Shown here piece by piece: positions 3,379 through 49,398 of a DNA stretch of 64,000 nt. The DNA is from Polytrichum commune (taxonomy: Eukaryota; Streptophyta; Polytrichopsida; Polytrichales; Polytrichaceae): positions 23,992,001 to 24,056,000 of the forward strand of contig OX485804.1 in NCBI GenBank assembly GCA_950295325.1. The letters run 5' to 3'. Within the stretch, counting starts at the first letter, position 1; each line of letters opens with the position of its first letter. The notes under the pieces were generated by a model that was not told the DNA's origin, searched no databases, and saw only the letters and a program-made list of their open reading frames with translations. The position numbers were made by a program, and so were the translations under genes.

Positions 3379-3714
3379 CACTCCAGAGGGGACCACAGGG
3401 GATTGAAGGTCCAAATCATTCATCCCAAATCAATCTTCAGCGATGTAGAAATCGTAAGTGTGTGCCCAATTAAAAACAGTTCTGGAAACAGAGGCACTAG
3501 CACAATGGGCAAGCACAAGGACACCATGATCATAGAGGTTAGATTTCGCAAATGCAAAAAAACACTCATAATATGATTCATGGAGTTTGTTCCAAGCAGG
3601 AACATCAGTGGAGATGTTGGGCACCGGCAAATTCTCGGGAACGTCTGCGAAGAGCAAATCGAGGCCCTTGTGAGTTGTAGTCAAGGTGTTCACACGGGAA
3701 CGATCTGTCCCAAC
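3379..3714 (-). CDS. Gene M exon: methyltransferase motif IV-like segment
   Basis: This 112-codon exon, phase 0 at both ends, reads 'GLDLLFADVPENLP' near its start. It has the placement of the catalytic (D/N/S)PP(Y/W) motif of DNA amino-methyltransferases (hydrophobic strand, then D-x-P), but the residues are DVPE rather than DPPY, so catalysis is doubtful. It continues with 'YDHGVLVLAHC', like the later strand of that fold. A TGA interrupts it after 'YIAED'; the frame stays open after it (FGMNDLDLQSP) up to the donor, so a former Trp codon is likely. In beta-class enzymes motif IV precedes the FxGxG motif, and the FxGxG-like motif is on the other side of the inversion at 48546-49093. Confidence 0.6.
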
Positions 3715-3808
3715 CTGCAATTAAAATCTCATGAGAGAACAAGACGAAAGAAAATAAGAAGCAAATCAAAAGAGAAGTTTGAAAAATGACGAAAGGAAAG
3801 ATACAAAC

Positions 3809-4470
3809 CTTGGCAATGAACTCCTGGATGCGGGTATATGCTGGGAGGGGACCTCCTGCAACCTCAGAATCCAGCATGAGTTGCACCATGTCCACATTTT
3901 TTATGAGGGCAAGAGTGTTAGGGGAACCCGAAGAGGTGGCACTCGTATCCAAAAGAGAGAAGAGAAGTGCCACTGTGAGAAGGAGTAGCAACAGTTTGTG
4001 GACGAAAGGCTGAGGGAGTGCCAGAGGGGGCAGCTGATGGAACAACAGAAGGAGTCCTAGATGGACTCCGTATGAAGGTGGATGGCTGAATGGGGGTCTT
4101 TAAAGCAGACCGAGTGACAAGTTGTGAAGTTGCTTGAGTGGCGGTATTCTTTGGTCTGCCCTTTCTTTTTGGTGCCTTGGGCGGAGGAGGAGGAATCTCA
4201 ACGATGTCGGGCTCCTCAAAGGGGATAATGCTCAGTTCGGGAGCAGTACTCACAATGCTGGCAAAAAGACTATTCTCTTCCGCAGGCACAAATCCTCCAG
4301 AACAATCCAAGTACCATCCCCCAGCCTGCAAGTGAGACTCCGGAAACTTTGCAACTTGAATGGCCGTATACACACAAAGAATGGAGTTGACATCCACCCA
4401 ATCTACAAGGAAAGTTGGCAAGCAGGAAGAAGGCAGGGCTTTCTTCACAACGAGCTCACGGTGAATGAAC
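3809..4470 (-). CDS. Gene M exon: low-complexity Pro/Ser/Thr linker
   Basis: The exon begins 'FIHRELVVKKALPSSC', carries a Pro-rich run with a basic AT-hook-like 'PKRKGRPKN', then a Ser/Thr/Pro-rich linker. Near 4000 the open frame shifts by one base: the first frame ends '..GYECHLFGFP' at 3918, and the other frame continues '..TSATSSGSPNTLALI' to the splice donor at 3808. Only the second frame gives the phase needed by the next exon. A sequencing error, a genuine indel or an unnoticed micro-intron could explain it. Confidence 0.6.
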
Positions 4471-4561
4471 CTGGAAAATAAAGAAAATCAGAAACTAAAA
4501 AGGTGGCGGAAAGGAAATGAAATGAAAACAAAACGGACTAAATGAAAACTCAAAATATTAC

Positions 4562-5100
4562 CGATAAGCGACGCGTTTGATTGATATGGGGCCTTCATCA
4601 AATTCCATGAGATCAAGGCCTTTGACAAATTTGAGGTCTCCCTTGTTGTCAAAATAAACCAGAAATGCCTTGTCCCACAAAATCAGCCTCCAATGTTCAA
4701 CATAATTCGCCGGTTGCAAAATATCCTCCGTGGAACCCCAGTCGATTTCAGCGGAACACTCATTCTCAAATGAAGCAATTTCAGCCTCAACCCCCTTCTC
4801 CAACTATAACAAGAAAGAAAAATGGTTAGAAATGTAAAGTAGAGAAATGAACAAATAGATGGAAAAAAGTTGTAGATGCACCTGAGCCCAAAAAGAAGCT
4901 TTATTGAGCCAGTTTTCGAGGACTTTCTCCCGAAGAGGGAGAGACGAGGGAAATTTGTTCTTCTCTTTGACCTCGGGAGTGGAATTCCACCACCGAAGCC
5001 ACTTGGCCTTATAATGAGCATCCACATGTGTGGTGGCCACCTTCTGGAGTTTCTCTATTGTCATATCTGTGACGAGGAAGGTGGAAAAATGACGGTCAAT
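4562..5100 (-). CDS. Gene M exons 5100-4882 and 4803-4562
   Basis: Two exons separated by a 78-bp intron with a TTGTTATAG acceptor. The first starts 'IDRHFSTFLVTDM' and contains 'KAKWLRWWNSTPEVK'; the second starts 'LEKGVEAEIASFE' and contains 'FLVYFDNKGDLKFV'. They are predicted soluble, mixed charged/aromatic sequence; I recognise no named domain. Phases 0 and 2 match their neighbours. They lie just downstream of the 2.3-kb satellite intron. Confidence 0.6.
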
Positions 5101-7403
5101 CTGCAACATATAAGAGTGATTTGTTAAGAAGAATTAAGTCAACCATGTTACCGACTTACACCTGATTTCAGAAATCTCCTAATCTAGCCCCGAACACTTA
5201 CATACAAATATGGCCCCCACACTTATAACCAAACACCGACCCTATACCCGATTTCAGAAACTCAAAACATGGCCCCAAAACAGACTCTACACTTGATTTC
5301 AGAAAATATCAAATATAGGCCCGAACACTGTAAAACTAGAAACACACTCGAAACCTGATTTCAAAAATTTCAAAATATGGCCACAGTGCCCCCCCTCTCG
5401 GAACCGAGAGGGTGCCCCCCTTGATACATATTGAAACTCAAAACTAGACTACATTCTAAGATCATCAAATATGGCCTCACATTTATAACCAAACACCGTC
5501 CCAACACTTCATTTCAGAAACTCAAAACATGGCCCAGACAACATGAAAACGAGAAACCCGACCCTACACTTCATTTCAGAAAATCAAATATGTACAAATT
5601 ACTTTCAATTCAGAAACTCGAGCCCACACATGATTTCAGATTTGTCAAAAACGGCCACCTAGCCCACCCTCTCGGAACCAAGAGGGTGCCCATTTCAGAT
5701 ATATATCAAACCCAAATCTAGACCTGAAATCTGAAATCTCACATAATGGCCATGTAGCCCACCCTCTCGGTTCTGAGAGGGTGCCCCATTTCACAGTAAT
5801 GTCAAACTCGAAACCACACTTAATCACCTACACCCGATTTGAGAAACTCAAAATTAGGGCCCCGAATATTTATAAACTGAAATTAGACTCTAGAGTTGAT
5901 TCAAGAAAATGTCAAATATGGCCCCGAACACTGTAAAAACAGAAACACCACTCAAAACTTGATTTCAGAAACTTCAAAATCTGGCCACCGTGCCCACCCT
6001 CTCGGAACCGAGAGGGTGCCACACTCAAACATATTGAAATTCATAACCACACTAAATGTTTAAATCCTCCAATATGGCCCCACATATATAACCAAATACC
6101 GACCCTACACCTCATTACAGACAATCTAATATGTTCCAAATACTTTCAATTCAGAAACTCGAGCCCACACATGATTTCAGATTTGTCAAAAATGGCCACC
6201 TAGCCCACCCTCTCGGTTCCGAGAGGGTGCCCATTTTACACTAATGTCAAATCAAAATCCACACACTCGCCTACACCTGATTTCAGAAACTACACTATTT
6301 GGCCACCTAGCCTACCCTCTCGAATCCGAGAGGGTGCCCCATTTCAGATATATATCAAACCAAAATCCACACTAATTCGCCTCCACCTGATTTCAGGATC
6401 TCAAATTATGGCCCCGAACACTCCGAGAGGGTGCCACACTCAAACATATTGAAATTCATAACTACATTAAATGTTTAAATCCTCAAATATGGCCCCACAT
6501 ATATAACCAATTACCGACCCTACACCTCATTTCAGACAATCAAATATGTTCAAAACACTTTCAATTCAAAAACTCGAGCCCACACCTGATTTTAGATTTG
6601 TCAAAAATGGCCACCTAGCCCACCCTCTCGGTTCCGAGAGGGTGCCCATTTCATACTAATGTCAAACAAGAATCCACACTAATTCGACTGCACCTGATTT
6701 CAGATTTATCATAAATGGCCACCTAGCCCACCCTCTCGGATCCGAGAGGGTGCCCATTTCACACTAATGTCAAACCAAAATCCACACACTCGCCTACACC
6801 TGATTTCAGAAACTACACTATTTGGCCACCTAGCCCACACTCTCGGTTCCGAGAGGGTGCCCCATTTCACACTAATGTCAAACCAAAATCCACACAATCG
6901 CCTACACCTGATTTCAGAAACTACACTATTTGGCCACCTAGCCTACCCTCTCGGTTCCGAGAGGGTGCCCCATTTCAAATATATATCAAACCAAAATCCA
7001 CACTAATTTGCCTACACCTAATTTCAGGATTTCAAATTATGGCCCCGAACACTCCGAGAGGGTGCCACACTCAAACATATTGAAATTCATAACCACACTA
7101 AATGTTTAAATCCTCAAATATGGCCCCACATATATAACCAAATACCGACCCTACACCTCATTTCAGACAATCAAATATGTTCCAAATACTGTCAATTCAG
7201 AAAGTCGAGCCCACACATGATTTCATATTTGTTAAAAATGGCCACCTAGCCCACCCTCTCGGTTCCGAGAGGGTGCCCATTTCAGATATATATCAAACCA
7301 AAATCCTCTCACTAGGCCATGTAGCCCACCCTCTCGGTTCCGAATACATATTAAATGAAAAATCAAATATGGCCAAAATCATGGCGAAGAGAGAAATGTT
7401 CAC
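5101..7403. repeat. Palindrome satellite, 2.3-kb intron of gene M
   Basis: The intron lies between the donor GTGAAC (minus, 7403) and an acceptor GTTGCAG (minus, 5101). It is filled with palindromes (CACCCTCTCGG, AA/TT, CCGAGAGGGTG) joined by spacers such as 'CACACTAATGTCAAAC' and 'CACCTGATTTCAGAAAC'. Both centres occur. I see no gene in it. Confidence 0.85.
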
Positions 7404-8529
7404 CTCATGGAAGAAATCATCACCGTTGTCCTTGTGGGCGACGGAAATGAATTTCTCAAAATTCCTGGTGCGAATGCTTTTGATCAACCTATCCTGGGCC
7501 TTTGTCATAGCTTCCCATATTTCTGGAGAAGTTCTAAGAGCCTTTGGAGTGGCCTCACGGTACAACCTTGCCGCGTTATCCGCAGCGTTGGATATCTCCC
7601 TCTAAAATAAACATAAAAGGATTAGGAACCAGCATGACCTGAAGACATGAACATTTGAGGGGAATAAAGAGAAAAATACCGTGTATAAGAATTTGACGAA
7701 GACGTCTATCGTAAGGGGATACCAAGTAGGAGTCTTTTCCATCTTGGACTCGCACATCTTGTAGTCTACGATGGAGAGGAGGTCTTTAAATTCTTCCAGC
7801 TTCATCTTTCCAAACGTCCGAATGCGAAGTAACTTTGCTGGGAGGTTGTCCTTAACATGGTCATGCTCCGTGGACCTACAACGAAGAAAATGTAAGAGGA
7901 AAACACTAACGAAATAAATACAAACACATGAATATAAAATGCCAAACTCACCAGTTTATGTCATTCATAGCATTCAGAAAAACGGCGGTGCAGTTTCTTG
8001 GATCCACGACGATACAGTCAGCAGAGATATGCCATTCTTTGTCCAACGGGTGATGCTTGTTGATGTGCCTCCACCAAGCTGTCAAACAATGGTTCCCCTC
8101 CCACACGAAGAACATTTTGCCCACAAAATGAGCAAGGTCTGAGTCTCTTTGGAGAATGGCATCAAATTCTGAATTGGCCTCCAGCCATAATGGACTCCAA
8201 GTGGCCTTGATGTCATCGGAGACGTGAAGGACTTCATCGAGATTGTTGTATACGGAGACGTACATAGCTCGATCACCATCACGATATCCCATAACAAATT
8301 CGTTTTCCAAACGTGCGACATCAACGTCGTTGATGGGACGAACAAGAGGAAGAGATTGCAGGCGACACAATGGAATAGAAAATCGTGACTTCCCAATAGG
8401 TTTGAATCGAACCCGGTGAATCACGGTGTTCGAGTCTTCCTTCTGTGATCTTCGAATCAAGAGCTCAGTCTCCTCTGGATTTGACTCTGCTAGTGGACGT
8501 AGGTAGTCTGAAACAGCCGGTACATCAAC
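7404..8529 (-). CDS. Gene M exons 8529-7952, 7875-7680, 7601-7404: ParB-like region
   Basis: Three exons joined by 76- and 78-bp introns with good GTGAGT/GTATTT donors. The first contains 'VRPINDVDVARLENEF' and, further on, 'FFVWEGNHCLTAWWRHI'. That layout resembles the ParB/Srx fold: an opening 'l.V..I.dvd.Le.eF' and a later G-N-H-R..A box, here GNHCLTA. The Arg of GNHR is replaced by Cys. In bacteria and phages ParB-like domains are often fused to amino-methyltransferases, which fits the methyltransferase-like exons downstream. The other two exons ('KMKLEEFKDLLSIVDYK' and 'SPEIWEAMTKAQDR') are helical and not recognised. Exon 8739-8623 upstream is acidic (DQEVQLVPP..LDDLSQEE). Confidence 0.5.
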
Positions 8530-9303
8530 CTAGAGAACAAGTCAATCCAAGAATAAGAAGTTAACCCCATAACCAAACAAACAATCAAAACATCAACAAC
8601 AAAAGTTACAAGAATGAATCACCTCTTCCTGTGAGAGATCATCAAGAGCCGCAGCAATCACCACAGGAGGCACCAATTGAACTTCCTGGTCCTCCATTGA
8701 TTCCCGCCGAGATGCAGTGAGATCTAGTGATTGTGATGCCTGCATACATACAACACATCTTAACACAACGAATCACCTCAATCCAGAAAATGGCCACCCT
8801 GCCCACCCTCTCGGAACCGAGAGGGTGCCCCATTTCAAATTTATGTAAAAACCGAATGTACACCTCATGTGAAGTCTCAAATTATGCCCACATAGCCCAC
8901 CCTCTCGGACCCGAGAGGGTGTCCCATTTTGATACAAAACTGAAATTCGAAACTACACCTGAAATCTCAATTATCATAAATGGCCACCCTGCCCACCCTC
9001 TCGGTTCCGAGAGGGTGCCCATTTCACACTAATGTCAAACAAGAATTCACACTAATTCAATTGCACCTGATTTTAGATTTATCATAATTGGCCACCTAGC
9101 CCACCCTCTCGGTTCTGAGAGGGTGCCCATTTCACACTAATGTCAAACCAAAATCCACACAATCGCCTACACCTGATTTCAGAAACTACACTATTTGGCC
9201 ACCTAGCCTACCCTCTCGGTTCCAAGAGGGTGCCCATTTCAAATATATATCAAACCAAACTCTACACCTGAAATCTTAATCCTCACAAAATGGCCACCTA
9301 GCC

Positions 9304-10130
9304 CACCCTCTCGGTTCCGAGAGGGTGCCCATTTCACACTAATCTCAAACCAAAATCCACACACTCGCCTACACCTGATTTCAGAAACTACATTATTTGG
9401 CCACCTAGCCTACCCTCTGGGTTCCGAGAGGGTGCCCATTTCAAATATATATCAAACCAAACTCTACACCTGAAATCTTAATCCTCACAAAATGGCCACC
9501 TAGCCCACCCTCTCGGTTCCGAGAGGGTGCCCATTTCACATTAATGTCAAACCAAAATCCACACAATCGCCTACACCTGATTTCAGAAACTACACTATTT
9601 GGCCACCTAGCCTACCCTCTCGGTTCCGAGAGGGTGCCCATTTCAAATATATATCAAACCAAACTCTACACCTGAAATCTTAATCCTCACAAAATGGCCA
9701 CCTAGCCCACCCTCTCGGTTCCGAGAGGGTGCCCATTTCACACTAATGTCAAACCAAAATCCACACAATCGCCTACACCTGATTTCAGAAACTACACTAT
9801 TTGGCCACCTAGCCTACCCTCTCGGTTCTGAGAGGGTGCCCATTTCAAATATATCTCAAACCAAACTCTACACCTGAAATCTTAATCCTCACAAAATGGC
9901 CACCTAGCCCACCCTCTCGGTTCCGAGAGGGTGCCCATTTCACACTAATGTCAAACAAGGATCCAAAATAATTCACCTGCACCTGATTTCAGATTTATCA
10001 TAATTGGCCACCTAGCCCACCCTCTTGGTTCCGAGAGGGTGCCCATTTCAAATATATATCAAACCAAACTCTACACTTGAAATCTTAATCCTCACAAAAT
10101 GGCCACCTAGCCCACCCTCTCGGTTCCGAG
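9304..10130. repeat. Higher-order satellite: 202-bp dimer
   Basis: The palindromes begin at 9304, 9411, 9506, 9613, 9708 and on to 9910: alternating 107 and 95 bp, so a 202-bp dimer repeats. One spacer type has 'CACACTAATGTCAAACC', the other 'CAAATATATATCAAACC'. The units are more alike here than elsewhere, as expected for recent local amplification. Confidence 0.85.
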
Positions 10131-13100
10131 AGGGTGCCCATTTCACACTAATGTCAAACCAAAATCCACACAATTGCCTACACCTGATTTCAGAAACTAC
10201 ACTATTTGGCCACCTAGCCTACCCTCTCGGAACCGAGAGGGTGCCCCATTTCAGATATATATCAAACCAAAATCTAAACCTGAAATCTGATATCTCAAAT
10301 AATGGGCACCTAGCCCACCCTCTCGGGTGCCCATTTCAGATATTATTCAAACCAAAATCTACATCTGAATTCTGAATCCTCACAAATTGGCCACCTACCC
10401 CACCCTCTCGGTTCCGAGAGGGTGCCCCATTTTGATACAAAACTCACATTCGAAACTACACTTGATTGCAGAGAGGGTGCCCAATTTCACACTAAAATCA
10501 AAATCGAATGCACACTTCATCGCCTACACTTAATTTCAGAAACTTAAATTATGGCCCCGAAATCTTCTAAGCTGAATAGTACCCTTACACATGATTTCAG
10601 AAATTGAGAAATATGGCCCCGAACACTGTGAGACCAGAAATATCACTCTAAACTTGATTTCAGAAACTTCAAAATCTGGCCACCGTGCCCACCCTCTCGG
10701 AACCGAGAGGGTGCCACACTCAAACATATTGAAATTCATAACCACACTAAATGTTTAAATCCTCAAATATGGCCCCAGATATATAACCAAATACCGACCC
10801 GACACCTCATTTCAGACAATCAAATATGTTGAAAACACTTTCAATTCAGAAACTCGAGCCCACGCCTGATTTCAGATTTGTCAAAAATGGCCACCTAGCC
10901 CACCCTCTCGGTTCCGAGAGGGTGCCCATTTCAAATATATATCAAACCAAAATCTACACCTGAATTCTGAATCCTCACAAAATGGCCACCTAGCCCACCC
11001 TCTCGGTTCCGAGAGGGTGCCCATTTCACACTAATGTCAAACAAAAATCCACACAATCGCCTACACCTGATTTCAGAAACTACACTATTTGGCCACCTAG
11101 CCCACCCTCTCGGTTCCGAGAGGGTGCCCCATTTCACACTAATGTCAAACCAAAATCCACACAATCGCCTACAACTGATTTCAGAAACTACACTATTTGA
11201 TCACCTAGCCCATCCTCTCGGTTCCGAGAGGGTGCCCCATTTCAGATATATATCAAACCAAAATCTAAACCTGAAATCTGATACAAAAGTCACATTCGAA
11301 CCTACACTTGATTGCAGAGAGGGTGCCCAATTTCACACTAAAATCAATATATATTTACACTTGATTTCAGAAAATGATAAATATGGCCCCGAATACTGTG
11401 AAAGCAAAAACACCACTCTTTTGCCTGATTTCAGGTACTTCAAAATTTGGCCACTGTGCCCACTCTCTCGGTTCCGATAGGGTGCCCCACTCATACATAT
11501 TGAAATTCATAACTACATTAAATGTTTAAATCCTCAAATATGGCCCCACATATATAACCAAATACCGACCCTACACCTCATTTCAGACAATCAAATATGT
11601 TCAAAATACTTTAAATTCGGAAACTCGAGCCACACCTGATTTCAGATTTATCATAAATGGCCACCCTTCCAACCCTCTCGGTTCCGAGAGGTTGCCCATT
11701 TCACACTAATGTCAAACAACAATCCACACTGATTTCAGAATTATCATAACTGGCCACCTAGCCCACCTTCTCGGGTCCGAGAGGGTGCCCCATTTCACAC
11801 TAATGTCAAACCAAAATCCACACACTCGCCTACATCTGATTTCAGAAACTACAATATTTGGCCACCTAGCCCACCCTCTCCGTTCCGAGAGGGTGCCCCA
11901 TTTCACACTAATGTCAAACCAAAATCCACACACTCGCCTACACCTGATTTCAGAAACTACAATATTTGCCCACCTAGCCCACCCTCTCGGTTCCTAGAGG
12001 GTGCCACATTTCACACTAATGTCAAACCAAAATCCACACAATCGCCTACAACTGATTTCAGAAACTACACTATTTGATCACCTAGCCCACCCTCTCGGTT
12101 CCGAGAGGGTGCCCCATTTCAGATATATATCAAACCAAAATCTACACCTGAAATCTGAATCCTCACAAAATGGCCACCTAGCCCACCCTCTCGGTTCCGA
12201 GAGGGTGCCCCATTTCAGATATATATCAAACCAAAATCTACACCTGAAATCTGAATCCTCACAAAATGGCCACCTAGCCCACCCTCTCGGTTCCGAGAGG
12301 GTGCCCATTTCACACTAATGTCAAACAAAAATCCACACAATCGCCTACACCTGATTTCAGAAACTACACTATTTGGCCACCTAGCCCACCCTGGTGCCCA
12401 TTCCACACTAATGTCAAACAAAAATCCACACAATCGCCTACACCTGATTTCATAAACTACACTATTTGGCCACCTAGCCCACCCTGGTGCCCATTCCACA
12501 CTAATGTCAAACAAAAATCCACACAATCGCCTACATCTGATTTCATAAACTACACTATTTGGCCACCTAGCCCACCCTCTCGGTTCCGAGAGGGTGCCCC
12601 ATTTCACACTAATGTCAAACCAAAATCCACACAATCGCCTACAAGTGATTTCAGAAACTACACTATTTGGCCACCTAGCCTATCCTCTCGGTTCCGAGAG
12701 GGTGCCCCATTTCAGATATATATCAAACCAAAATCTACATCTGAATTCTGAATCCTCACAAATTGGCCACCTACCCCACCCTCTCGGTTCCGAGAGGGTG
12801 CCCCATTTTGATACAAAACTCACATTCGAACCTACACTTGATTGCAGAGAGGGTGCCCAATTTCACACTAAAATCAAAATCGAATGCACACGTCATCGCC
12901 TACACTTGATTTCATAAACTTAAATTATGGCCCCGAACTCTTCTAAGCTGAATAGTACACTTCCACATGATTTCAGAAAATGAGAAATATGGCCCCGAAC
13001 ACTGTGAAACCTGAAATATCACTCTCAACTTGATTTCAGAAACTTCAAAATCTGGCCACCGTGCCCACCCTCTCGGAACTGAGAGGGTGCCACACTCAAA

Positions 13101-13710
13101 CATATTGAAATTCATAACCACACTAAATGTTTAAATCCTCAAATATGGTCCCACATATATAACCAAATACCGACCCTAAACCTCATTTCAGACAATCAAA
13201 TATGTTCAAAATACTTTCAATTCAGAAACTCGAGCCCACACCTGATTTCAGATTTATCATAATTGGCCACCCTGCCCACCCTCTCGGTTCCGAGAGGGTG
13301 CCCATTTCACACTAATGTCAAACCAAAATCCACACAATCGCCTACACCTGATTTCAGAAACTACACTATTTGGCCACCTAGCCTACCCTCTCGGTTCCGA
13401 GAGGGTGCCCCCATTTCAGATATATATCAAACCCAAATCTAAACCTGAAATCTGAAATCAAATATGTTCAAAACACTTTCAATTCAGAAACTCAAGCCCA
13501 CACCTGATTTCAGATTTGTCAAAAATGGCCACCTAGCCCACCCTCTCGGTTCCGAGAGGGTGCCCATTTCAGATATATATCAAACCCAAATCTAAATCTG
13601 AAATCTGAAATCTCACATAATGGCCATCTAGCCCACCCTCTCGGTTCCGAGAGGGTGCCCCATTTCACATTAATATCAAACCCAAATCTACACCGGAAAT
13701 CTGAAATACC

Positions 13711-14110
13711 ACCTGATTCCGAGTCTACACCTGATTTTTGAAACTTCAAATGTGGTTTTGGGTTTTGCTTCCCACCAGATTCCTTGTCTACACCTGATTC
13801 CAGAAACTTCAAATATGCTCCCGAACACTTCCCACCTGAATCCGAGTCTACACCTGTTTTCAGAAACTTCGAATATGGTCCCCAACACTCCACACCAGAT
13901 TCCGAGTCCACACCTGTTCTCCGAAAGTTCGAATATGGTGCCGAACTCTTCCCACCTGATTCCTAGTCTACACCTGATTTCAGAAATTTTAATTATGATT
14001 CCTATTCCCACCTGATTCCGAGTCTACACCTGATGTCAGAAACTTCAAATGTGGTCGCGAACACATCCCACCAGATTCCGAGTCTAGACCTAATTTCAGA
14101 AACTTCGAAT
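13711..14110. repeat. 60-bp tandem repeat
   Basis: Units start 'CCCACCTGATTCCGAGTC' and recur at 13771, 13831, 13891 and 13951, then 14007 and 14067, nearly all 60 bp apart. They share 'CACCTGATTTCAGAAACTTC' with the satellite but lack the GC palindrome. Confidence 0.85.
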
Positions 14111-14356
14111 ATGGTGCCGAATACTATTGAGCCATAAACTGGACCCAACACCCTAAAGTGTACCGAGAGGCCGCCCCTTCAGGTCTTCCCATCCGACCGT
14201 CATTTCGAATCTTCATTCCCCCCGCCCAATCTGAAACTCGACTCTACACCTAATTTCAGATTTTTCTAATATGGCCCAAATAGTAACAAAATCTGCCCAC
14301 CCTATACGACGTGACATGCCTCCGGCTCCCCCACAAATCAATATCTCAGTTTTACT

Positions 14357-19532: not shown

Positions 19533-19576
19533 TAGCTGTGTCGTCCGGCCCACTTATTATCTACATGTGAGCACCC

Positions 19577-39352: not shown

Positions 39353-39357
39353 GCGGA

Positions 39358-40303: not shown

Positions 40304-43144
40304 TGTGAACCCTTTGAGTGGTCCACCACTCTGCGGGATCACTTTTAGTTAGAATGTTAGGATTAAAAGTTAGAATTGATAGGGAATTTAGGAAAAATTA
40401 GTTCATTTAGCATTTAGCCTAGAAGAAGGAAGGTCAAAATGAAACTAAGTAGTGCTAGAAGATAGCAAAGTAGAAAAAAATATGCTAGCTAGTAAAAACA
40501 ACTAGCTAAGCAAATATTAGTAGATGCTAGTTATTAAGCAAATGTTAGTAGATGCTAGCTAAGCAAGTGTTAGTTTATTAGTTAGTGTGAGGCACACAAG
40601 ACTATTGGAGGTGTTTTACGTAAGAAGATAAAATCGGCGTGAAGAATTTTGAAGACAAAAAAGAAAGAGAGCAAGGGGGATACTTGCCCACTTGCCCCCT
40701 TGCCAACTCGATGGCGGAAAAATTAGAAAGATTTCTAAAGGTTTTTTGTCGGAGCCACCTCGGCGAGAGGGTGGCAACCTCAACCGGGAAAACCCCCGAG
40801 CCAAAATTTCGGGAAAGGGTTTGAAAAATGGATCCGGTGGAGGAGGGGTCCAACCCTTTTGTGAGAGGGTTTAAAAAACCCCTCCTTCCACCTTGTAGCT
40901 CTCTCTCTTTCTCTAGTTTTTGGGCGAAGCCCTGCTTCAATGTAGTTAGGAAAAAATCCTTTAGCATGTATTCTCAATGGTCTAAAAGAAAGGCTTGAGA
41001 ACCTCCTCTACTCTCTCTCTCCTAGTTAGGTTGTGTGTTTATTAACACACCAACAAAATTATTCCTTCTTTTGTAGAGGTAGGTTGGATGGTAGAGTTTT
41101 GAGTAGAGGCATTATAGACCTCATCTGCCAATGCCCTGAAGGCTTAGTTCAAAAGCTAGAACAAGATACTTATCATTTTTCTCTTAGAGAGATTTCATAT
41201 AGCTATCCATAGCCGTTTCCCATTTGTGATTTGGTTGAGATGACAATTAGTTATGGATTTTCAAAGATGGAGTAGAAAAACTGGGTGGTCTTGTGGGTAG
41301 CGGCTGCTGGATCAGACCTGCGAGCCCAATAGGAATTTTAATTCCAAGAAATTATATTTTTCCCAAGTAGAACTTTTGTGTAGCTTTCCAAAATGGCTTA
41401 GAACATTTGATTTGAGCATGATTTGAATTAGATATGAATTGTGCAAGATGGGACACATAGTTTGAGAACTTTTGGTTGACTGCTGCATTACAGAGGACCT
41501 GCTGGGTTCACTTCGGCTTACCTTTCTAATCACATATTTTTATCAAATACATCTTTTTAATATCTCTCCAGGGTCATATAGAACGTTTGATTTGACTAAG
41601 ATTTGAATTAGATATGAATTGTTGAAGGCGAGATACATAGTTTAAGCCTTCTTGATTGACTGCTGTGTTACAAGGAGTCCGCTGAATTTCTATTAGCTTA
41701 ACCTGCTGATGTCATAATTTTTCTAGTTAGAGCTTGTTCATAGCTTTCCAATGGTATAAGGAAAGCCTAGATCCAAGTAGTAAGGAATGTGCTATGAATT
41801 TTTGAAGTTAGAAGGTAGATAGGTGGGTTGGAAGGGTCGGTTGAATCGACCTCACACTTCCAACCCTCATAACTTTTGCATTTCTTATCCGATTAGAGTG
41901 ATTTTTAGATCATTGGAAAGATAATTTGGTGCACTAAGTATAAATATTATGCTTAGGATTAAATTACAGGGCAGAATAACACTTTATATTTTAATTGTTA
42001 ACTAAGGTACGCTTACTACCAAACTAGTTACAAAGAAGGAGGCAAGGTCGACGCTCGGAAAGTGGAGCAAGGAAGGAGGTAGCGGCTCGGCCTACATCAA
42101 GCCCAAATCAACCGAGGAAAATTGAGGTAAATTAACTAACCTTAAGCCTTCCATTTAGGATTGGAGGGAGCACGGCTAAGGTACGCATCTCTAAACCCAC
42201 TCACCTATCTCGTAAGGTCAAGTGGCTTGACCACTTGACCGCCAAGGGAGTACCCAATTCCATTGTTTTCGGGGCCCTTGGTATGTTTTGTGGTAGTAGC
42301 TTCATTTATTAGCAAGTTTCGTGTGTGGTAAGTCGGATTAATCACCGACACGACCACTCTGAATGTTGTTGGTGGAAAGGTGGGGTTAATGACCCGCGAA
42401 TCCACTATTATGTTGTTGGCCCCATAGATTGGGAGTAATGGCCCCAATTTATGAAGATTGCGCAACAGGTTGAACCTACAGGTCGCCCGTCACCCTGGTC
42501 CCATTTAGTTGCATTTCGTGGTCTATCCAGTGTAAACACATTTAACAATCAAAACATACAAAATAAATCGTAAACCCTTGTTGGCAAGAGACCCGAGGTA
42601 AGGGGTGATGCCTAATATGTTAATGTAGTAAGTTAGGACGTGCAAACAAAAGTAAGTAATTAAGAAGGAATTTGTGTGAAGGGTGGGACTTAGGCCAAGT
42701 TCCCCCGCTTAGAAAACTAAATAGAACTAAATAAAGAAATAGGAAGAATTGAATGGTCCATCAAATTGTCGTTATTCCGTTCGTTGAGTTAGGGTGGTAT
42801 GAGTCACACCCGGTTGGATATATCAGAACCATCCCAATTCACAAATTAGGATTGCCTTGGTTTCAAGGCTGGTGCGTCTGCGCGTAGAATAGGTTGTAGG
42901 TTAAGGTTAGAACTAGATATGAAATTGGTTAGTGGAGTTTAAAGCCACACTAGTAAAAAACTAAGGCCTAACCTCCGGAGGTACTACGACGCATATTTAA
43001 TCTCCCTTAAAAATCTAACTACTCACGTTATACACCTATCATCCGGGTTCGGCTTGGGCGCCTGCAAATGCAGGCCACCTTCACCGAAGGGCTTGTGTGA
43101 TACTTTTAGGCTCCCTCGAAAGGGGGTGGCCCAAAAGTACCACA
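40304..43144 (+). repeat. 5' LTR of the family-B gag-protease element
   Basis: It starts TGTGAACCC at 40304 and ends GTACCACA at 43144, directly before a primer-binding site. The first 1,679 bp are the inverted match of 1-1678. It could alternatively be two abutting pieces: a 16-bp near-perfect inverted pair lies at 43095-43110 and 43129-43144. Confidence 0.65.
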
Positions 43145-43148
43145 TAAT

Positions 43149-43166
43149 TGGTGCGTCCGCCGGGAG
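43149..43166 (+). promoter_or_regulatory. Primer-binding site of the family-B element
   Basis: TGGTGCGTCCGCCGGGAG, four bases after the LTR end, 15 of 18 bases like the site in element A. Confidence 0.7.
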
Positions 43167-43282
43167 GGTGGATGCCCCTGCCATACTCGGATAATATTTC
43201 TTTGAGTACTTATACGTTTAGACTAAGAGAAGAAGAGTTTAGTCCAATAGAAGTTAGTCATACGTCATGGGCCACATGTGCT

Positions 43283-46200
43283 ATGGTTAGTACTAGGGGA
43301 CGATCGTACGACACCCCAACAACAACAACCGCATTTGCATCGGAGGCAACACCAGGTAAGAGGTCGAAGAACGAACCACCAAAACCCGGAAAGACTAAGG
43401 AAAATAAATATCAAGGTCTAGGTCCAGAGTCCGAGCGCGAGAGGGAGAAATCCCCCACCCCACAAAGTCCGGTTAGGGTGGCACGACCCCAACTCATGGC
43501 GAATCCTTTGGATGCAATGATGGCTCCTAGAGGGCCTCCCATTGTAATGCCACAAGCATTAGCGCCAAGGGCGATGCCGAGTTATTTTCCGAAGTTCGGT
43601 GGCCTCCCGCATGAGGATCCTTCAACCCACATTGAACGATATATTGAGGTAATGTTGGCCAACGTGATAGCCGAAGACACGTACAAACTCGTTTGGTTTT
43701 CTACTACGCTAGAGGGTATAGCGTATGAGTGGTACCGATCCCACGATGAGGGGACATTTAGGGACTGGCGAGCATTGCAGACGGCATTCCTTAGACAATT
43801 TAGACCGGAAATGGGCCAACAAAGCGCACTCGTGGCGTTAACGAACATGCGGCAAGGCCCATCCGAGGGTATTACATCATACATCCGACGGTTCGAGACG
43901 GTGGTAACTCGTTATGTAGGAACCCTTCTCACAAATGACACGATTAAATTCTACTTCATACAAGGGTTCAACAAACAAGGTACAATCCGAGAAATTCTTA
44001 ACTCCAACCCTCAGGATTTGGAAGAAGCTAAAGCCGAGGCTAGGAGGATCGAAGGTGTAGACAAACAAAATGAGCGGATGTGGAATTGCACTATTGCACC
44101 TGTGCCAGCCTTCCTACCCACAACCTACATTCCTCCCGAGCAGAGTAAGCCTCCTCAGCTGGAGCCATCCCGACCGGATGCATACGCAGTCCACCGAGCG
44201 GCCCCGGTTCCTTTGGCTACGAGGCCACCCCCTGAGCTCTTAGCACTCCCTAGCCCTCCGAGCCACACCACAATCGAGGAGCTAGAACTTAGAGTTAAGA
44301 AGGCCAACGACGAGTTGAGGAGCGATGTCATGCAGTCGCTCAAGACCCTCACAGAGCAGCTAACAATGGCAATCACGTCTAGGCCCTTAGCACAACCAGT
44401 TCCGCCGGCCTCGGAGGCGGGTAATTATGGCACCAACATTTGGTGTCGTAATTGCAACAAACCTGGCCACAGTAATCAATTTTGCACGGAGCCTAGGTTC
44501 ACAGGTAACCTAGTAGCCCCACCCCCCCGTCCACAACAAGGCCACTCCCAGACTCAAGCCCGGAACAACGGTAAAGGAGTTTGTCCCACTTGCGGCAAGG
44601 TTCACATTTTGGGGCCAGGTAAGTGTTGGATCGAGACGGGGGTGGTCTGCAACCATTGTGGGGGTAATCACCCGGTCGATAATTGTCGTAGGATTCTCGC
44701 GGAGCGACCCTCCCATTACTCTCAGCTGAATCAACAACTTCCGGCATTCTTCTATGATAGGAATCAACAGAACCAAGGAGGAATGTCGGTTAATTATCAC
44801 CAAGGTAACCCTCAAAGCAATGGCCAACAAAACTACGGTCCACCCAACCACCAAAACCAAGGTAATAGGGGGAACAACTATCAAGGTCCACAAAATTTGT
44901 ACCCTCAAAACCCCCCAGCCGGTGGTAGGCAAGCCGACTCGAACTTGGTAGGAATGGTAAGCCAACAGTATGTCCCTCAGATGGGCTGGAACCAACCGAA
45001 TAGGTTCAACAATGGACCCCAAGTTGCACAACAAGGTAATACCTTCAATAACTCCCCTAATGAAGGCAACCCATTCTATGGGTACCAAATGAACCAAGGT
45101 CAGGCTTATGGTCTTAACGGTCAGTATACCGACAACCCTCCTCAACATCTTATGGGGAGTGGACAGGATACTAACCAACAATGGGCGCAAAACATGAATG
45201 GGCCTCCAACATCCCAAGGTCCCCTTAACCTTGGTCATGCACAAACCCAAGACGCGAGGTTCATTGATAACAATAGGGCGAGCACAAGTTGTTCAGCTCC
45301 ATTCCTTCCTATCCCAAACGATAGTCATAGCAACTTCATCTCTCACGAGCTAGCCGATTCTTCTTTACGGGCTATCCTGGTTCCCCCTAAAAAACTAAAG
45401 CAGAAAATAGACGTGGCAGTGGTCACTAGGGCTCAGAAGAGGGCACAAACCGTGATGGGTGAAGGTTCCGAGAAGTCGAATGAGTCTGAAAAGTCACCAA
45501 AATTCGCAGAACTTCCAGAGTTCTTGCAGAACGCAGCCCTTAAGGCTAAGGTTCCCACAACTTCCCTAGGGCCTAACCCGGATGACGAACCGGTAGAAGA
45601 GCCATTTCTGGAGGAAGAGGAAGACCTCTTCCGATTTGTGGATAGACGAGACGCATGGGGCAATGGCCTGCCCGCTAACTTCCCACCGAAACCCCGGCCT
45701 AGTCGCGCCTTTAACCCGGCCGAGGACTACGACCTTTGGTCAGACCTTTGTAGCCTACGAGCCAACATTTCTTTGGCACAACTAATTCAAGTAGCTCCCG
45801 CCTTAGGAAAGGAATTCAAGGAAGGAGCCACCCAGGTTAGGAAGGCTAAAATCCCAACGATGGCAGTTGAGGTCCGAAGAACCCCCCTAGGGGACGAAGG
45901 ACCAATCGAGGTGGAGGTTGAGATTATGGACAAAATAATCCCGCACACCCTGGTTGATGGGGGTAGTGGGATCAATATTATGCCACTCTCAACGTTGGAA
46001 AAACTTGGCCTCGAGCTCACTGGCCCTTCACCCTTTGTTATCAATGTCGCGGACCAAAGACAAGTCACCCCCCTTGGACAGGTAAAGGATTGCTTGATGA
46101 AAGTCGGGGGAGAAGTCTATACGATCACGTTTCAAGTTTTGAGGCTCCCTGTAACATCCAAAAGTTATCCGATACTTTTAGGTAGAGACTGGCTTCGGAG

Positions 46201-47188
46201 AGCAAATGCCACAACCGAGTGGTCTACGGGTACCTCCCAAATAACATTTGGGCCCCCTCACAACAGAACAACGACAAGAATTGCACTCCGTAAGCCTTCG
46301 ACAGAATTCACGGAATCCGACCTACCCAAGTCGAAGCCAGAACCCAACATAGTTTCGGTAGACTTAGCCAACCAAACATTGGGCATTAAGACCCATCTAG
46401 GCCCAGTAAAGGACATGGGTCCTGGCCTCTATGGCTGGGAGGACACAGGTGAGTTCACAGCATGGATGGAACTCAACCCGGAAGAAATTCCCAACCACAC
46501 CCAGGTATATGCGATCACCGCCACCGAGGACACGTCACGTGGACACACCGGATTCGTGCTCATAGCCGATGACCTACCGCTTGAGTCAATTTATTCCTTT
46601 GAGATTGATGGCACGCAACCTATAGTCCTAGAGGACCTCGTGCTCGAAGAAGATATTGTTCCATCCTTGCATTTCAAGAACACCTCTACCGGAATTCAGG
46701 TAGGCCATGATTTCGCGTCATATCCTTCGGTGCCAAACGATTGGTATAAAGGTCCAACCAACCAAATGCCGTTTGCCCTTGTATACGGGATTGAAGCAGT
46801 GCTCCCAATCGAGTTGGAGATCCCCTCTTTGCGAATTGCAGTTGATTCACGACTTACGGTAGCCAAGTCACTATCAGATAGGTTGCTAATGTTAGAGAGT
46901 CTTAGCGAGCGACGACGAGCTAGTGTGCAACATCTCGAGGCGATGAAACGGAGGCGCAAGGCCGTCTTCAACAAACGACACAAGGTAAGAACTTTGCAAC
47001 CCGGGACGTCGGTAATGCTCCAAGATGCGAGGAAACTGGAGTTCCCAGGTAAGTCTCACGCCTTGTGGTTGGGCCCTTTTTGGGTCACGAACGTGTATGA
47101 CAATAATTCGGTTCAATTGGCTACACTTGATGGCACATATTTCCCTACGCGAACTAACGGGGGTCGGTGTAAGTTGTATAATGTGTGA
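43283..47188 (+). CDS. Gag-protease polyprotein with reverse transcriptase/RNase H/integrase core deleted
   Basis: The open frame extends back to 43148, but ATG 43283 (MVSTRGR) parallels the start of element A's protein and is preferred. Gag has 'WYRSHDEGTFRDWRALQ', a CCHC knuckle (CRNCNKPGHSNQFC, cysteine codon at 44444), a second Cys/His box and a long Asn/Gln-rich region. A protease 'LVDGGSGINIMP' has its Asp at 45956. At about 46745-46765 the reading passes directly from 'SVPNDWYKG' to 'MPFALVYGIEAVLPIE'. In element A these points are separated by the reverse transcriptase, RNase H and integrase catalytic core. The C-terminal integrase tail is retained in frame to 47188. With no stop codon in 3.9 kb, the deletion product appears to have been maintained as a coding gene that would depend on a helper for reverse transcription and integration. 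Confidence 0.9.
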   Translation: MVSTRGRSYDTPTTTTAFASEATPGKRSKNEPPKPGKTKENKYQGLGPESEREREKSPTPQSPVRVARPQLMANPLDAMMAPRGPPIVMPQALAPRAMPSYFPKFGGLPHEDPSTHIERYIEVMLANVIAEDTYKLVWFSTTLEGIAYEWYRSHDEGTFRDWRALQTAFLRQFRPEMGQQSALVALTNMRQGPSEGITSYIRRFETVVTRYVGTLLTNDTIKFYFIQGFNKQGTIREILNSNPQDLEEAKAEARRIEGVDKQNERMWNCTIAPVPAFLPTTYIPPEQSKPPQLEPSRPDAYAVHRAAPVPLATRPPPELLALPSPPSHTTIEELELRVKKANDELRSDVMQSLKTLTEQLTMAITSRPLAQPVPPASEAGNYGTNIWCRNCNKPGHSNQFCTEPRFTGNLVAPPPRPQQGHSQTQARNNGKGVCPTCGKVHILGPGKCWIETGVVCNHCGGNHPVDNCRRILAERPSHYSQLNQQLPAFFYDRNQQNQGGMSVNYHQGNPQSNGQQNYGPPNHQNQGNRGNNYQGPQNLYPQNPPAGGRQADSNLVGMVSQQYVPQMGWNQPNRFNNGPQVAQQGNTFNNSPNEGNPFYGYQMNQGQAYGLNGQYTDNPPQHLMGSGQDTNQQWAQNMNGPPTSQGPLNLGHAQTQDARFIDNNRASTSCSAPFLPIPNDSHSNFISHELADSSLRAILVPPKKLKQKIDVAVVTRAQKRAQTVMGEGSEKSNESEKSPKFAELPEFLQNAALKAKVPTTSLGPNPDDEPVEEPFLEEEEDLFRFVDRRDAWGNGLPANFPPKPRPSRAFNPAEDYDLWSDLCSLRANISLAQLIQVAPALGKEFKEGATQVRKAKIPTMAVEVRRTPLGDEGPIEVEVEIMDKIIPHTLVDGGSGINIMPLSTLEKLGLELTGPSPFVINVADQRQVTPLGQVKDCLMKVGGEVYTITFQVLRLPVTSKSYPILLGRDWLRRANATTEWSTGTSQITFGPPHNRTTTRIALRKPSTEFTESDLPKSKPEPNIVSVDLANQTLGIKTHLGPVKDMGPGLYGWEDTGEFTAWMELNPEEIPNHTQVYAITATEDTSRGHTGFVLIADDLPLESIYSFEIDGTQPIVLEDLVLEEDIVPSLHFKNTSTGIQVGHDFASYPSVPNDWYKGPTNQMPFALVYGIEAVLPIELEIPSLRIAVDSRLTVAKSLSDRLLMLESLSERRRASVQHLEAMKRRRKAVFNKRHKVRTLQPGTSVMLQDARKLEFPGKSHALWLGPFWVTNVYDNNSVQLATLDGTYFPTRTNGGRCKLYNV

Positions 47189-47718
47189 CAGGTGCAACTA
47201 GCGGATTAAATGCGATGTGATACCTTTAGACCCAAAGCAAAGGCGGAGGGTTTCAAATTCCTGCAATAGGTGCTAGGTTAGAGGTCGGCCCTCCGTGGTC
47301 ATTGTTTGAAGGAAACCAGTAGGGGGACCTTCTTTCTTCAGCGCCTGGGAATTGCTCTTGTAGTCCGAACTCTCTCCGAAGAGGAAGGAAGCGGGTTGAA
47401 AGTTTTTTCTTCTATAGCTCCAAGTTGCTCCCGCAAGGCGGAGGGGGTGTCCTAGATAGACACAAACCCAGTCCGGTGGGGGAGTGTGGCGGCTTTGAAG
47501 TGTTTTTTGGCTTTAGTATAGTACTATCTTTTTTTTCTCTCCTCTTCACATCTTTAAACGGATAAAAGTGCAAGTAATAATAAGAAATAAAAAAAACAAA
47601 ACAAAAATATATGTGTAAGTGGTGGTGTGCATGCAGGTGACCGTGTACCCAGGATTGGCGTGCGAGCAAGAGCTGGTGTTCGTAGCGCTCGAACGAGCAG
47701 CTCCCCTGATGGCCGACA
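47189..47718 (+). other. 3' end of the family-B element, poorly defined
   Basis: No gene. A purine-rich GGTGGGGGAG at 47477-47486 precedes TGTGGCGGC at 47487, a possible polypurine tract and LTR start. The element ends GGCCGACA at 47718, before the CCATA duplication. Neither this start nor this end matches the 5' LTR (TGTGAACCC..GTACCACA), so the 3' LTR is truncated or belongs to another element. Confidence 0.4.
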
Positions 47719-47723
47719 CCATA
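47719..47723. repeat. Target-site duplication half (CCATA)
   Basis: Partner of 1679-1683 read on the other strand. Confidence 0.75.
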
Positions 47724-48545
47724 TAGTGAAGTTTCTGAAATAAGGCTGAGTGGTGTTTCTGGTTTAAAAGTGTTCGGGGCCGTATTTGATATTTTCTGAA
47801 ATGAAGTGTAGAGTCGGATTTATAGTTTACAAGTGTTCGGGGCCATATTAGATGATTATGAAATCAAGTGTAGACTAGGCTTTGAAGTTCATAAATGTTT
47901 TTCATAATTTCATAAATTGTTAGGGGCCATATTAGAGGATTCTGGAATCAGGTGTAGACTATGCTTTGAAGTTCATAAAGTTTTTTCAAATTTCATAAAT
48001 TGTTAGGGGCCTTATTAGGGGATTCTGAAATCAAGTGTAGATTCGGATTTTTAGTTTACAAGTGTTCGGGGCCATAAAAGATGATTCTGAAATCAGGTAT
48101 AGACTAGGCTTTTAAGTTCATAAATGTTTTTCAAATTGCATAAATGTTCAGGGGCCATATTAGAGGATTCTGGAATCAGGTATACATTCGGCTTTCAAGT
48201 ACATGAATTTCCAGGGGCCATAATCGAGGTTTTTTGAAATCAGGTGTAGCGTCCGCTTTTTAGTTTACAAGTTCTCGGGGCCATATTTGAAGTTTCTAAA
48301 ATCAGGTGTGAGGGGGTCACCCTCTCGGTTGGGTCTGACATCAGGTGTAGGGTCTACGAGGCCATTTTTGAGACATCTGAAATCAGGTGTACGTTCGAGT
48401 TTCTGATTTGAAAATATCATTTAACATATTTGATTATCTGAAATGAAGTGTACAGTCTGTTTTTCAGTTTATATGGTTTCGGGGCCATGTTTTGAGTTTC
48501 TGAAATAAGGTGTAGGGTCTTCTGAAATTGTTTTGAGTTTTTTAG
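47724..48545. repeat. Palindrome satellite, rest of the split intron of gene M
   Basis: Same units as 1684-3378 but in reverse orientation (AGTGTTCGGGGCCATAT, TTTCTGAAATCAGGTGTAG). It ends at an acceptor, TTTTTTAG at 48538-48545. Confidence 0.85.
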
Positions 48546-49398
48546 ACTCGGAAATTCAACATCAAGGTTCTTGTTCGTGCTAACTCCGTTCTCAAAGTGC
48601 GTGAGGAGGCTATGCAAGAGTATGGTTACAACCTCCAGCGTGATGGATGGTTGAATGCTTTCACCGATGAGAAGAGCCAGGCGATGCGCAGTGATGGGGT
48701 ACCTTGGCGAGGTGCTCGAGAAAAGCATCATGTTTTCTTCTCTATCCTCCTCGCTACTCTCACCGACAAGAATGATGTTATTATGGACTGGCAGTGTGGT
48801 GTAGGTACGCATTATCTTTCAGCATCATCCTTACTTTGAATTTTCCGTTATTTTTTCTTCATTAGTTTCATACTAACATTTTCCTTTTTTTTAGGTGGTT
48901 CGATTATAGCATGTCGCTCACTTGAACGGCATATTGTGGCGCTTGAGAGTGACCCCGTTATTTTCAATGCAATCCTTCTCCCCATGCGCGATTCCCAACC
49001 TTCGCGTACTCCCCGCTCAGTTGCCCCACCGTCTACCTCTATTTTTGATCCGCCTCAGAAGATGACCAAACGGGCATTCGGTTTTCTTTGTGCGTAAGTT
49101 TGCTTTATATGTTTTGTCATGTTTACCTTCATGTCATTTTCCCATGTTCATGTGTCTTCTCGTTTCTAATCTACTTGCTTGGGGGTTCAGAGTGTCAGGG
49201 GAGAACGCAGTCCTTCGTCGAGGCATGTGTTCAAGTCCTTCCAAGACGTTCGAGCTCCCTCCGTATGCTGATGAGTTTGCCAATGTTTTAGCGGAAGCTC
49301 CGTCTCCACCTCCTAGTCGCATCCGACCATTCAACAAGCTAGTATTGGATTTCCTAGATATAGAGGCTGAGGAGGGCGAAGATAGTGATAGAGGATAG
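48546..49398 (+). CDS. Gene M, right half: methyltransferase FxGxG-like domain and C-terminus
   Basis: Exons 48546-48804, 48895-49093 and 49191-49398 are joined by 90- and 97-bp introns (GTACGC..TTTTTAG; GTAAGT..GGTTCAG). Phases agree throughout, and the first exon starts phase 0, as the last left-half exon (3379) ends. It reads 'REKHHVFFSILLATL', then 'VIMDWQCGVGGSIIA', then 'RHIVALESDPVIFNAIL'. This is the typical C-terminal layout of beta-class amino-methyltransferases: a helix before, the FxGxG cofactor loop (here WQCGVGGS), then a strand ending in an acidic residue. The tail is Pro-rich and acidic (EAEEGEDSDRG). Similar domains exist in DNA N6-adenine and N4-cytosine methyltransferases; the substrate cannot be told here. 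Confidence 0.7.

What the first reader, a model, noticed from the sequence alone, without database searches (positions are those of the whole stretch)
3379..49398. Gene M: a ParB-like plus amino-methyltransferase protein encoded inside a MULE-type transposon
The rejoined exons encode, in order, a basic nuclear segment, a ParB/Srx-like region (GNHCLTA box), a Pro-rich linker with an AT-hook-like motif, a DVP motif in the place of DPPY, and an FxGxG-like cofactor loop. That order is the beta class of DNA amino-methyltransferases. ParB-methyltransferase fusions are known in bacteria and phages; I know of none in a plant transposon. A self-encoded methyltransferase could mark or protect the element's own DNA, as an analogue of anti-silencing proteins of some MULEs. 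That role is inference.
Basis: partly seen in the sequence, partly recalled or inferred. Interest (0 to 1): 0.9.

Follow-up and report, generated by a model that had tools for sequence, protein, structure and literature searches.

The report
Transposon's own DNA-marking protein gene

Summary
Gene M is real. Its exons sit on opposite strands because 1,679-40,303 is inverted; undoing that restores a 10-bp target duplication, a 5-bp retroelement duplication and one sense for the repeats. The host genome (408 Mb) gave 150 scored exon-3 matches. In 18 of 20 fetched copies exons 3-12 lie in order on one strand; 46 of 77 transposase matches have gene M divergently within 20 kb (random 0.27). It belongs to a transposon, MULE-type by its ends (10-bp duplications in 3 of 5 copies tried). 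dN/dS between subfamilies is 0.11-0.20.

The C-terminal half has a beta-order amino-methyltransferase fold (hhalign 94%, 210 columns), but DPPY is replaced by D[VI]P[ED]N in 16 of 18 readable copies: catalysis is uncertain. ParB is unproven: no profile test supports it, though Box II reads GNHR in 18 of 20 copies. The window copy is dead.

New here: the three subfamilies sampled have different palindrome arrays in their noncoding DNA (core CGGWWCCG), matching the N-half in 20 of 20 loci; linkage could explain that. ParB-methyltransferase genes in algal transposons, with the self-marking idea, are already published. Best reading: a VANC-like self-recognition and protection protein.

The parts
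49191..49398 (+). gene M exon 12 (C-terminus, stop codon)
   Evidence: acceptor and phase fit; matches in other copies in order
48895..49093 (+). gene M exon 11: rest of cofactor loop (motif I) ...GGSIIACRSLERHIVALESDP
   Evidence: hmmsearch 27.0 bits against phage-collection amino-methyltransferases, best reported shuffle 4.7
48546..48804 (+). gene M exon 10: region between the motifs and start of motif I (DWQCGVG)
3379..3714 (-). gene M exon 9: DVPEN in the place of DPPY (motif IV); holds an in-frame stop near 3430
   Evidence: family profile aligns it to the DPPY motif of phage enzymes; readable in 18 other copies, none DPPY
3809..4470 (-). gene M exon 8: Pro-rich linker, KRKGRPK AT-hook-like motif; frame break near 3960
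   Evidence: open across the break in the 4 copies printed
4562..4803 (-). gene M exon 7
4882..5100 (-). gene M exon 6
5101..7403 (-). gene M intron 5, with 11 palindromes
7404..7601 (-). gene M exon 5
7680..7875 (-). gene M exon 4
7952..8529 (-). gene M exon 3: candidate ParB/Srx-like region, Box-II-like WEGNHCLTAWW (GNHR in 18 of 20 other copies)
   Evidence: no ParB profile support
8623..8739 (-). gene M exon 2 (possible start codon inside)
   Evidence: found in 8 of 20 copies
8740..14340 (-). intron 1 / leader with 37 copies of CCCTCTCGGNNCCGAGAGGG (up to 3 mismatches)
14940..18318 (+). transposase gene, divergent from gene M; broken by a frame change near 16645 and an in-frame stop at 17677-17679; C-terminal CxC...CxH as in SWIM fingers (read by eye)
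   Evidence: no transposase or SWIM Pfam hit
19475..19546 (.). transposase-side terminus with terminal inverted repeat
19547..19556 (.). 10-bp target site duplication, transposase side (rc TAAGTGGGCC)
   Evidence: 0 of 5000 shuffles
49758..49819 (.). gene-M-side terminus with terminal inverted repeat
49820..49829 (.). 10-bp target site duplication TAAGTGGGCC, gene M side
1679..3378 (-). left part of intron 9 (repeats, 3 palindromes); starts with 5-bp duplication CCATA
47719..48545 (+). right part of intron 9, from 5-bp duplication CCATA
1..1678 (-). retroelement copy, 99.7% inverted repeat of 40304-41982: presumed site of the inversion
40304..47718 (+). gag-bearing retroelement inserted in intron 9 of gene M (not part of the transposon)

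Best explanation
Gene M is the accessory gene of a MULE-type DNA transposon family (about 19.4 kb in one copy with both ends), divergent from the transposase. Shown: exon order, linkage to the transposase, ends, multi-copy state, purifying selection, amino-methyltransferase fold of the C-terminal half, and subfamily-specific palindrome arrays in the element's own noncoding DNA. Inferred: the N-terminal half (ParB/Srx-like Box II) binds the palindromes, probably as a dimer; the methyltransferase-like half is thereby held on the element and either marks its DNA (N4C or N6A) or, as the catalytic motif is altered, acts as a DNA- or cofactor-binding domain. The result is self-recognition that protects the element from host silencing or regulates it, working like VANC of VANDAL elements. 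The window copy itself is inactive.
For: Linkage: 46 of 77 transposase matches (the window's own pair included) have gene M divergently within 20 kb, 0 in another orientation, random 0.27. Ends: 10-bp duplications in 3 of 5 copies tried. Selection: dN/dS 0.11-0.12 (exons 3-7) and 0.15-0.20 (exons 9-11) for pairs between subfamilies with measurable dS. Fold: hhalign 94.0%, score 56.4 over 210 columns from motif IV to motif I, maximum of 60 column shuffles 21.8; single sequence, 0 of 100 shuffles reach the score. Arrays: 51 palindromes in the window, all inside the element parts; palindrome type matches the N-half subfamily in 20 of 20 gene loci (only one site per locus in the 6 B and 2 C pieces); the B type has 1,903 exact genomic sites, reversed control 0, and of the first 50 sites listed 49 lie within 30 kb upstream of one of three transposase copies. 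Subfamily B has an A-like C-half (dS 0.31-0.32 against A) but an N-half with saturated dS, and has the other palindrome. VANC targets likewise are same-sense motif arrays in introns and noncoding DNA (PMC5735166, passages).
Against: No binding, methylation or expression was measured. DPPY is absent in all 18 readable copies, so there may be no catalysis. ParB similarity is not significant in any test. The array lies next to the N-half, and the subfamily B transposase is also only about 71% identical to the window's, so array and N-half may be linked by position rather than co-adapted. Array conservation may partly reflect recent tandem amplification. 28 of 77 transposase matches had no divergent gene M match within 40 kb, and 104 of 150 gene M matches had no scored transposase within 20 kb; both lists are capped. 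Of the 4 copies printed in full, 3 hold a stop.
Confidence: 0.5

Rival explanations
1. The methyltransferase half is catalytically dead and gene M is purely a sequence-specific DNA-binding protein, a transcriptional or transposition regulator of the element.
For: D[VI]P[ED]N replaces DPPY in 16 of 18 readable copies, the other two being DISEN and DIPKN; none has a PP-aromatic motif. The change is shared by three subfamilies, so it is not decay of one copy.
Against: Motif I is strongly supported and conserved where readable; this half has dN/dS 0.15-0.20; the aspartate of motif IV is kept in 18 of 18 and one proline in 17 of 18.
Confidence: 0.35
2. The palindrome arrays are mere satellite growth inside the transposon and have nothing to do with the protein.
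For: Tandem arrays expand quickly; array and N-half are physically adjacent and could be inherited together; the arrays also hold other, non-palindromic repeats.
Against: Three subfamilies have different arrays, all built on palindromes with the shared core CGGWWCCG (one upstream region read for each of B and C); in the window the palindrome columns stay above average when the units are anchored on another word (mean 1.20 against 0.92 bits), though 31 of 51 units there hold a palindrome.
Confidence: 0.25
3. The split of gene M in the window is an assembly error rather than a real inversion.
For: The two breakpoints lie in 99.7% identical inverted retroelement copies, where assemblers also fail.
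Against: No read data were available to test it. The reading of the family does not depend on it, since other copies are collinear.
Confidence: 0.3

Closest known systems
ParB-methyltransferase accessory gene of transposon Sola1-1_Ec32 (Ectocarpus), and the green and red algal transposon proteins cited with it (PMC12477816: section 5, passages and part of the reference list read; its references 50 and 51 not held)
   Same: About 1,100 aa; predicted DNA-binding plus amino-methyltransferase parts; inside a giant DNA transposon on the strand opposite to the transposase; proposed to bind and modify its own transposon.
   Different: Different transposon type (10-bp duplications here; 4 bp for Sola is recalled); motif IV altered; ParB part not demonstrable by sequence; palindrome arrays are not mentioned in the parts read. 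Sequence comparison was not possible.
VANC anti-silencing proteins of VANDAL MULEs in Arabidopsis (PMC5735166, passages; PMC10398659, abstract)
   Same: Accessory gene in a MULE; short motif in same-sense tandem arrays in introns and noncoding DNA; arrays differ between relatives.
   Different: VANC is not known to me as a methyltransferase (recalled); here motifs are palindromes; effect on silencing not tested.
Phage ParB-N6/N4 methyltransferase fusions, e.g. WOVitA1 methylase (PMC12704722, passages)
   Same: Order: N-terminal ParB-like part, then beta-order methyltransferase.
   Different: About 400-460 aa with DPPY (9 sequences aligned); WOVitA1 has a recognisable ParB_N (E 9e-5, slightly below Pfam's cut-off). 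Gene M is about 1,060 aa, with introns, altered motif IV and no significant ParB score.
Bdelloid rotifer N4CMT and charophyte or dinoflagellate retrotransposon DNMTs (PMC8885841, passages; PMC5890265, abstract)
   Same: Methyltransferases tied to transposon control or carried by transposons in eukaryotes.
   Different: N4CMT is a host gene with a chromodomain; the retrotransposon enzymes are C5-methyltransferases.

Membership tests
MULE (Mutator-like) DNA transposons | target site duplication of 8-11 bp (PMC6446971) | tested here: met
   10 bp in the window, L043 and L044; L031 and L041 gave no complete pair
MULE (Mutator-like) DNA transposons | terminal inverted repeats | tested here: met
   GGACGACAC... 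and ...AGTTTCCC with GTAGAGCGG and GAGAGCGG repeats
MULE (Mutator-like) DNA transposons | transposase with MULE DDE domain, often SWIM finger | tested here: inconclusive
   No MULE or SWIM Pfam hit; CxC...CxH and NLAESVHN read by eye; MULE consensus recalled
beta-class amino (N4C/N6A) DNA methyltransferases | motif IV before motif I in one fold | tested here: met
   hhalign 94.0% over 210 columns; motif IV half of the window copy alone not significant
beta-class amino (N4C/N6A) DNA methyltransferases | catalytic [DNS]PP[YFW] (consensus recalled) | tested here: not met
   0 of 18 readable copies
beta-class amino (N4C/N6A) DNA methyltransferases | methylation activity | not testable with these tools
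   needs assay or modification map
ParB-CTPase fold | significant sequence or structure similarity | tested here: not met
   single-sequence AlphaFold model pLDDT 34, unusable
ParB-CTPase fold | Box II GxxR | tested here: met
   GNHR in 18 of 20 copies (window GNHC); motif named from PMC12704722
Transposon-borne ParB-methyltransferase proteins (PMC12477816) | in a DNA transposon, opposite strand to transposase | tested here: met
Transposon-borne ParB-methyltransferase proteins (PMC12477816) | sequence homology to the Sola1-1_Ec32 protein | not testable with these tools
   sequence not held; protein database switched off
VANDAL/VANC systems | motif arrays, same sense, in noncoding DNA of the same element | tested here: met
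VANDAL/VANC systems | protein homologous to VANC and removing silencing marks | not tested
   no VANC sequence was sought; effect needs bench work

The most novel reading that the evidence does not exclude
A eukaryotic DNA transposon family with its own parS-like self-recognition system: a divergent ParB-like protein loads on a subfamily-specific palindrome array in the element and carries an altered methyltransferase domain that marks or shields the element; subfamilies change identity by swapping reader and array while keeping the effector half.
Probability: 0.3. Interest if true: 0.9.

Novelty: new variant of a known kind. Interest (0 to 1): 0.7.

Why it matters
It would join two known themes, transposon-borne ParB-methyltransferases and VANC-type anti-silencing, and ask what a conserved methyltransferase fold without the usual catalytic motif does.

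Tried and rejected
Single-sequence AlphaFold of exon 3: pLDDT 34, no fold search made. ParB by profile: unproven. Motif IV half of the window copy alone against the methyltransferase HMM: not significant; 26 of the 354 shuffles reported (500 made) reach it. Relatives by the search for related loci, which sees close relatives only: none in viral contigs or genome contigs (made with the retroelement protein of 43148-47185, not with gene M); the A palindrome with five flanking bases: 0 in both collections. ParB region by tblastn in phages and plasmids: 10 records up to E 10, none annotated ParB, several without annotation. tRNA and Rfam: none. Literature: among the rows listed, PMC12477816 was the only paper found that reports a ParB-methyltransferase in a eukaryotic transposon (searches; 14 was on Marchantia 4mC, 79 on VANC; lists are capped at 8-20 rows); 21507349, 10.1002/bies.201500104 and 10.1016/j.cub.2025.04.044 are not held.
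Full report
What is there. On the minus strand of the window exons 2-9 of gene M run from 8739 to 3379, and exons 10-12 lie on the plus strand from 48546 to 49398. The nine introns checked have GT-AG ends. The 1,019 codons checked, without the end of exon 8 after the frame break, contain one stop; 1,000 shuffles give a mean of 49 and a minimum of 29. The copy is broken: a frame break in exon 8, an in-frame stop in exon 9, and the strand switch. The join of the basic ORF proposed as exon 1 to exon 2 could not be established; this was judged by eye on the sequence.

Why the exons are on two strands. Window 1-1678 and 40304-41982 are inverted copies, 99.7% identical. Flipping 1679-40303 restores four things at once: collinear gene M; the terminal inverted repeats with a 10-bp duplication TAAGTGGGCC, 14 bp outside the repeat core at both ends (0 of 5,000 shuffles); a 5-bp duplication CCATA around the retroelement 40304-47718 that sits in intron 9; and a single sense for two repeat words, 44 of 44 and 83 of 83 occurrences within the element (one further hit of the first word straddles the retroelement border). 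Real inversion and assembly error cannot be told apart here.

The family in the genome. The genome search answered after several busy replies. The window is G000:C2:23992001-24056000 of a 407.8-Mb genome. Exon 3 gave 150 scored matches out of 1,286 first-look candidates; the transposase gave 79 listed rows from 2,197 candidates, of which I used 77 and dropped two fragment rows. Of these 77, 46 have a gene M exon 3 within 20 kb in divergent orientation and none in another orientation; random placement gives 0.27. At 40 kb it is 49 divergent and 3 other. Seen from gene M, 46 of 150 matches have a scored transposase divergently within 20 kb, 0 in another orientation; the other 104 were not tested further, since most transposase candidates were not scored. 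Of 20 fetched copies 18 show exons 3-12 in order on one strand; L032 is cut by the end of the fetched piece and L035 shows nothing after exon 7 (in the two subfamily C copies the second half of exon 8 was matched only in the searches). Three of the four copies printed in full hold a stop. L043 and L044 have both ends with 10-bp duplications and the same termini as the window; L031 and L041 did not give a complete pair. L044 measures 19,379 bp from end to end. A MULE duplication of 8-11 bp and frequent SWIM fingers are stated in PMC6446971 (passages). No MULE domain was found by Pfam, so 'MULE-type' rests on the ends, a CxC...CxH pattern and a NLAESVHN stretch read by eye against a recalled consensus.

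The C-terminal half. Single sequence: PDB phmmer hits DpnA at E 0.0077 over motif I; NCBIfam CcrM E 0.0015, far below its curated cut-off; PHROG methyltransferases E 0.00026 and 0.0027; Pfam N6_N4_Mtase only E 0.11 with this half, nothing with the whole protein. tblastn in phages up to E 10 gave 39 records; of the 20 listed, 18 match this half and carry methylase or methyltransferase annotations, best E 0.003. Against a profile of 18 amino-methyltransferases from the phage collection, hhalign gives 92.0% over 64 columns at motif I, and no shuffle of 100 reaches the score; hmmsearch gives 27.0 bits against a best of 4.7 among the 255 shuffles reported (500 made). The motif IV half of the window copy alone is not significant (26 of 354 reported shuffles reach it). 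With the family alignment (19 rows) the match is 94.0% over 210 columns and includes motif IV, in beta order; the maximum of 60 column shuffles is 21.8 against 56.4. But DPPY reads DVPEN, DIPEN or DVPDN in 16 of 18 readable copies and DISEN or DIPKN in two. The altered motif is therefore a family trait. Whether such a domain methylates DNA is unknown.

The N-terminal half. No library or profile test supports ParB; no family; only unrelated structures at E above 1; 35 of 100 shuffles score as high; nothing reported for the core region; for the longer piece 152 of 280 reported shuffles reach it., allowing for an insert: 196 of 200 shuffles score as high; 0.13% with the family alignment, although the optimum places GNHRLTAWW on Box II; none of 10 records annotated ParB. 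Against this stands the stretch VWEGNH.LTAWWRH, the same in all 12 rows, with R in 18 of 20 copies (W and Q in two, C in the window), which fits the GxxR of Box II (PMC12704722, passages). I treat ParB as a plausible but unproven lead.

Selection. dN/dS for pairs between subfamilies with measurable dS is 0.11-0.12 in exons 3-7 and 0.15-0.20 in exons 9-11; the linker exon 8 is looser, 0.28-0.60. Four close pairs have few changes and ratios from 0.25 to 1.5, which I do not interpret. Subfamily B has an N-half whose dS against A is saturated while the C-half has dS 0.31-0.32 against A and 0.46 against A2, so the two halves have different histories: a module exchange.

The arrays. The window element has 51 copies of CCCTCTCGGNNCCGAGAGGG with up to 3 mismatches (33 exact), 37 in intron 1, 11 in intron 5, 3 in intron 9, and none elsewhere in the 64 kb; 49 of 51 stand in the gene M sense by their flank. 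In subfamily B one region upstream of exon 3 (L055) holds 49 copies of GAGGCCTCGGATCCGAGGCCTC (43 exact), in C one region (L056) holds 8 of AATCCCACGGATCCGTGGGATT. Over 20 gene loci the palindrome type always matches the N-half: 12 of 12 A or A2, 6 of 6 B (one site each in the piece held), 2 of 2 C (one site each), with no foreign type. Genome-wide the B palindrome has 1,903 exact sites and its reversed control none; the list shows only the first 50 sites, all on C1, and 49 of them lie within 30 kb upstream of one of three transposase copies. The A and C counts could not be obtained. The three share CGGWWCCG and differ in the outer arms. Anchoring on another word, the palindrome columns still carry more information than the rest (1.20 against 0.92 bits), though 31 of the 51 units hold a palindrome and the alignment is rough. 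Of 20 arm substitutions 10 fall on the 4 of 18 CpG bases (P 0.006; 7 are C to T or G to A), as expected if the arrays had been 5mC-methylated.

How it probably works. VANC proteins of VANDAL MULEs bind short motifs arrayed in one sense in introns and noncoding DNA of their own element and remove silencing marks (PMC5735166, passages; PMC10398659, abstract). Gene M has the same layout. I infer that its N-terminal half reads the palindrome and that the methyltransferase-like half marks or shields the element. Steps shown: linkage, fold, selection, arrays. Steps inferred: binding, marking, effect on silencing. The main weakness is that array, N-half and transposase are neighbours and could have travelled together.

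What is known. The Ectocarpus study (PMC12477816; section 5, passages and part of the reference list seen; [quoted passage not shown] So the kind is known. New here, as far as the listed rows of searches and the passages seen go, are the MULE-type setting, the family-wide change of the catalytic motif, the module exchange and the subfamily-specific palindrome arrays. Membership in the ParB-methyltransferase class is likely but was not tested by sequence.

Noticed in passing
28235-39352: Complete Ty3/gypsy element with identical 1.95-kb LTRs and a 5-bp duplication GCGGA: a very recent insertion beside the transposon.
   Followed up: partly
59850-61658 (minus): Transposase ORF of 602 aa, Pfam DDE_Tnp_1_7 E 4e-69, which I recall as the piggyBac family.
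   Followed up: no
50229-64000: Several copies of an about 970-bp repeat, direct and inverted, around that ORF, including a 1.9-kb self-inverted stretch at 52712-54613.
   Followed up: no
G000 contig C4, 41-59 Mb: 44 of the 150 exon-3 matches lie in these 18 Mb (6.7 expected), many with stops: perhaps a low-recombination or sex-linked region.
   Followed up: partly
G000: Seven contigs of 42-78 Mb hold 406.1 of 407.8 Mb, suggesting n = 7; I recall n = 7 for Polytrichaceae mosses, a guess only.
   Followed up: no
L041-L046: Subfamily B copies are compact and nearly identical in the 3' part compared (about 98-99.9%), and same-score matches recur: a recent burst.
   Followed up: partly
40304-47718: The retroelement in intron 9 has TG..CA ends and a 5-bp duplication but no terminal direct repeat was found.
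   Followed up: no
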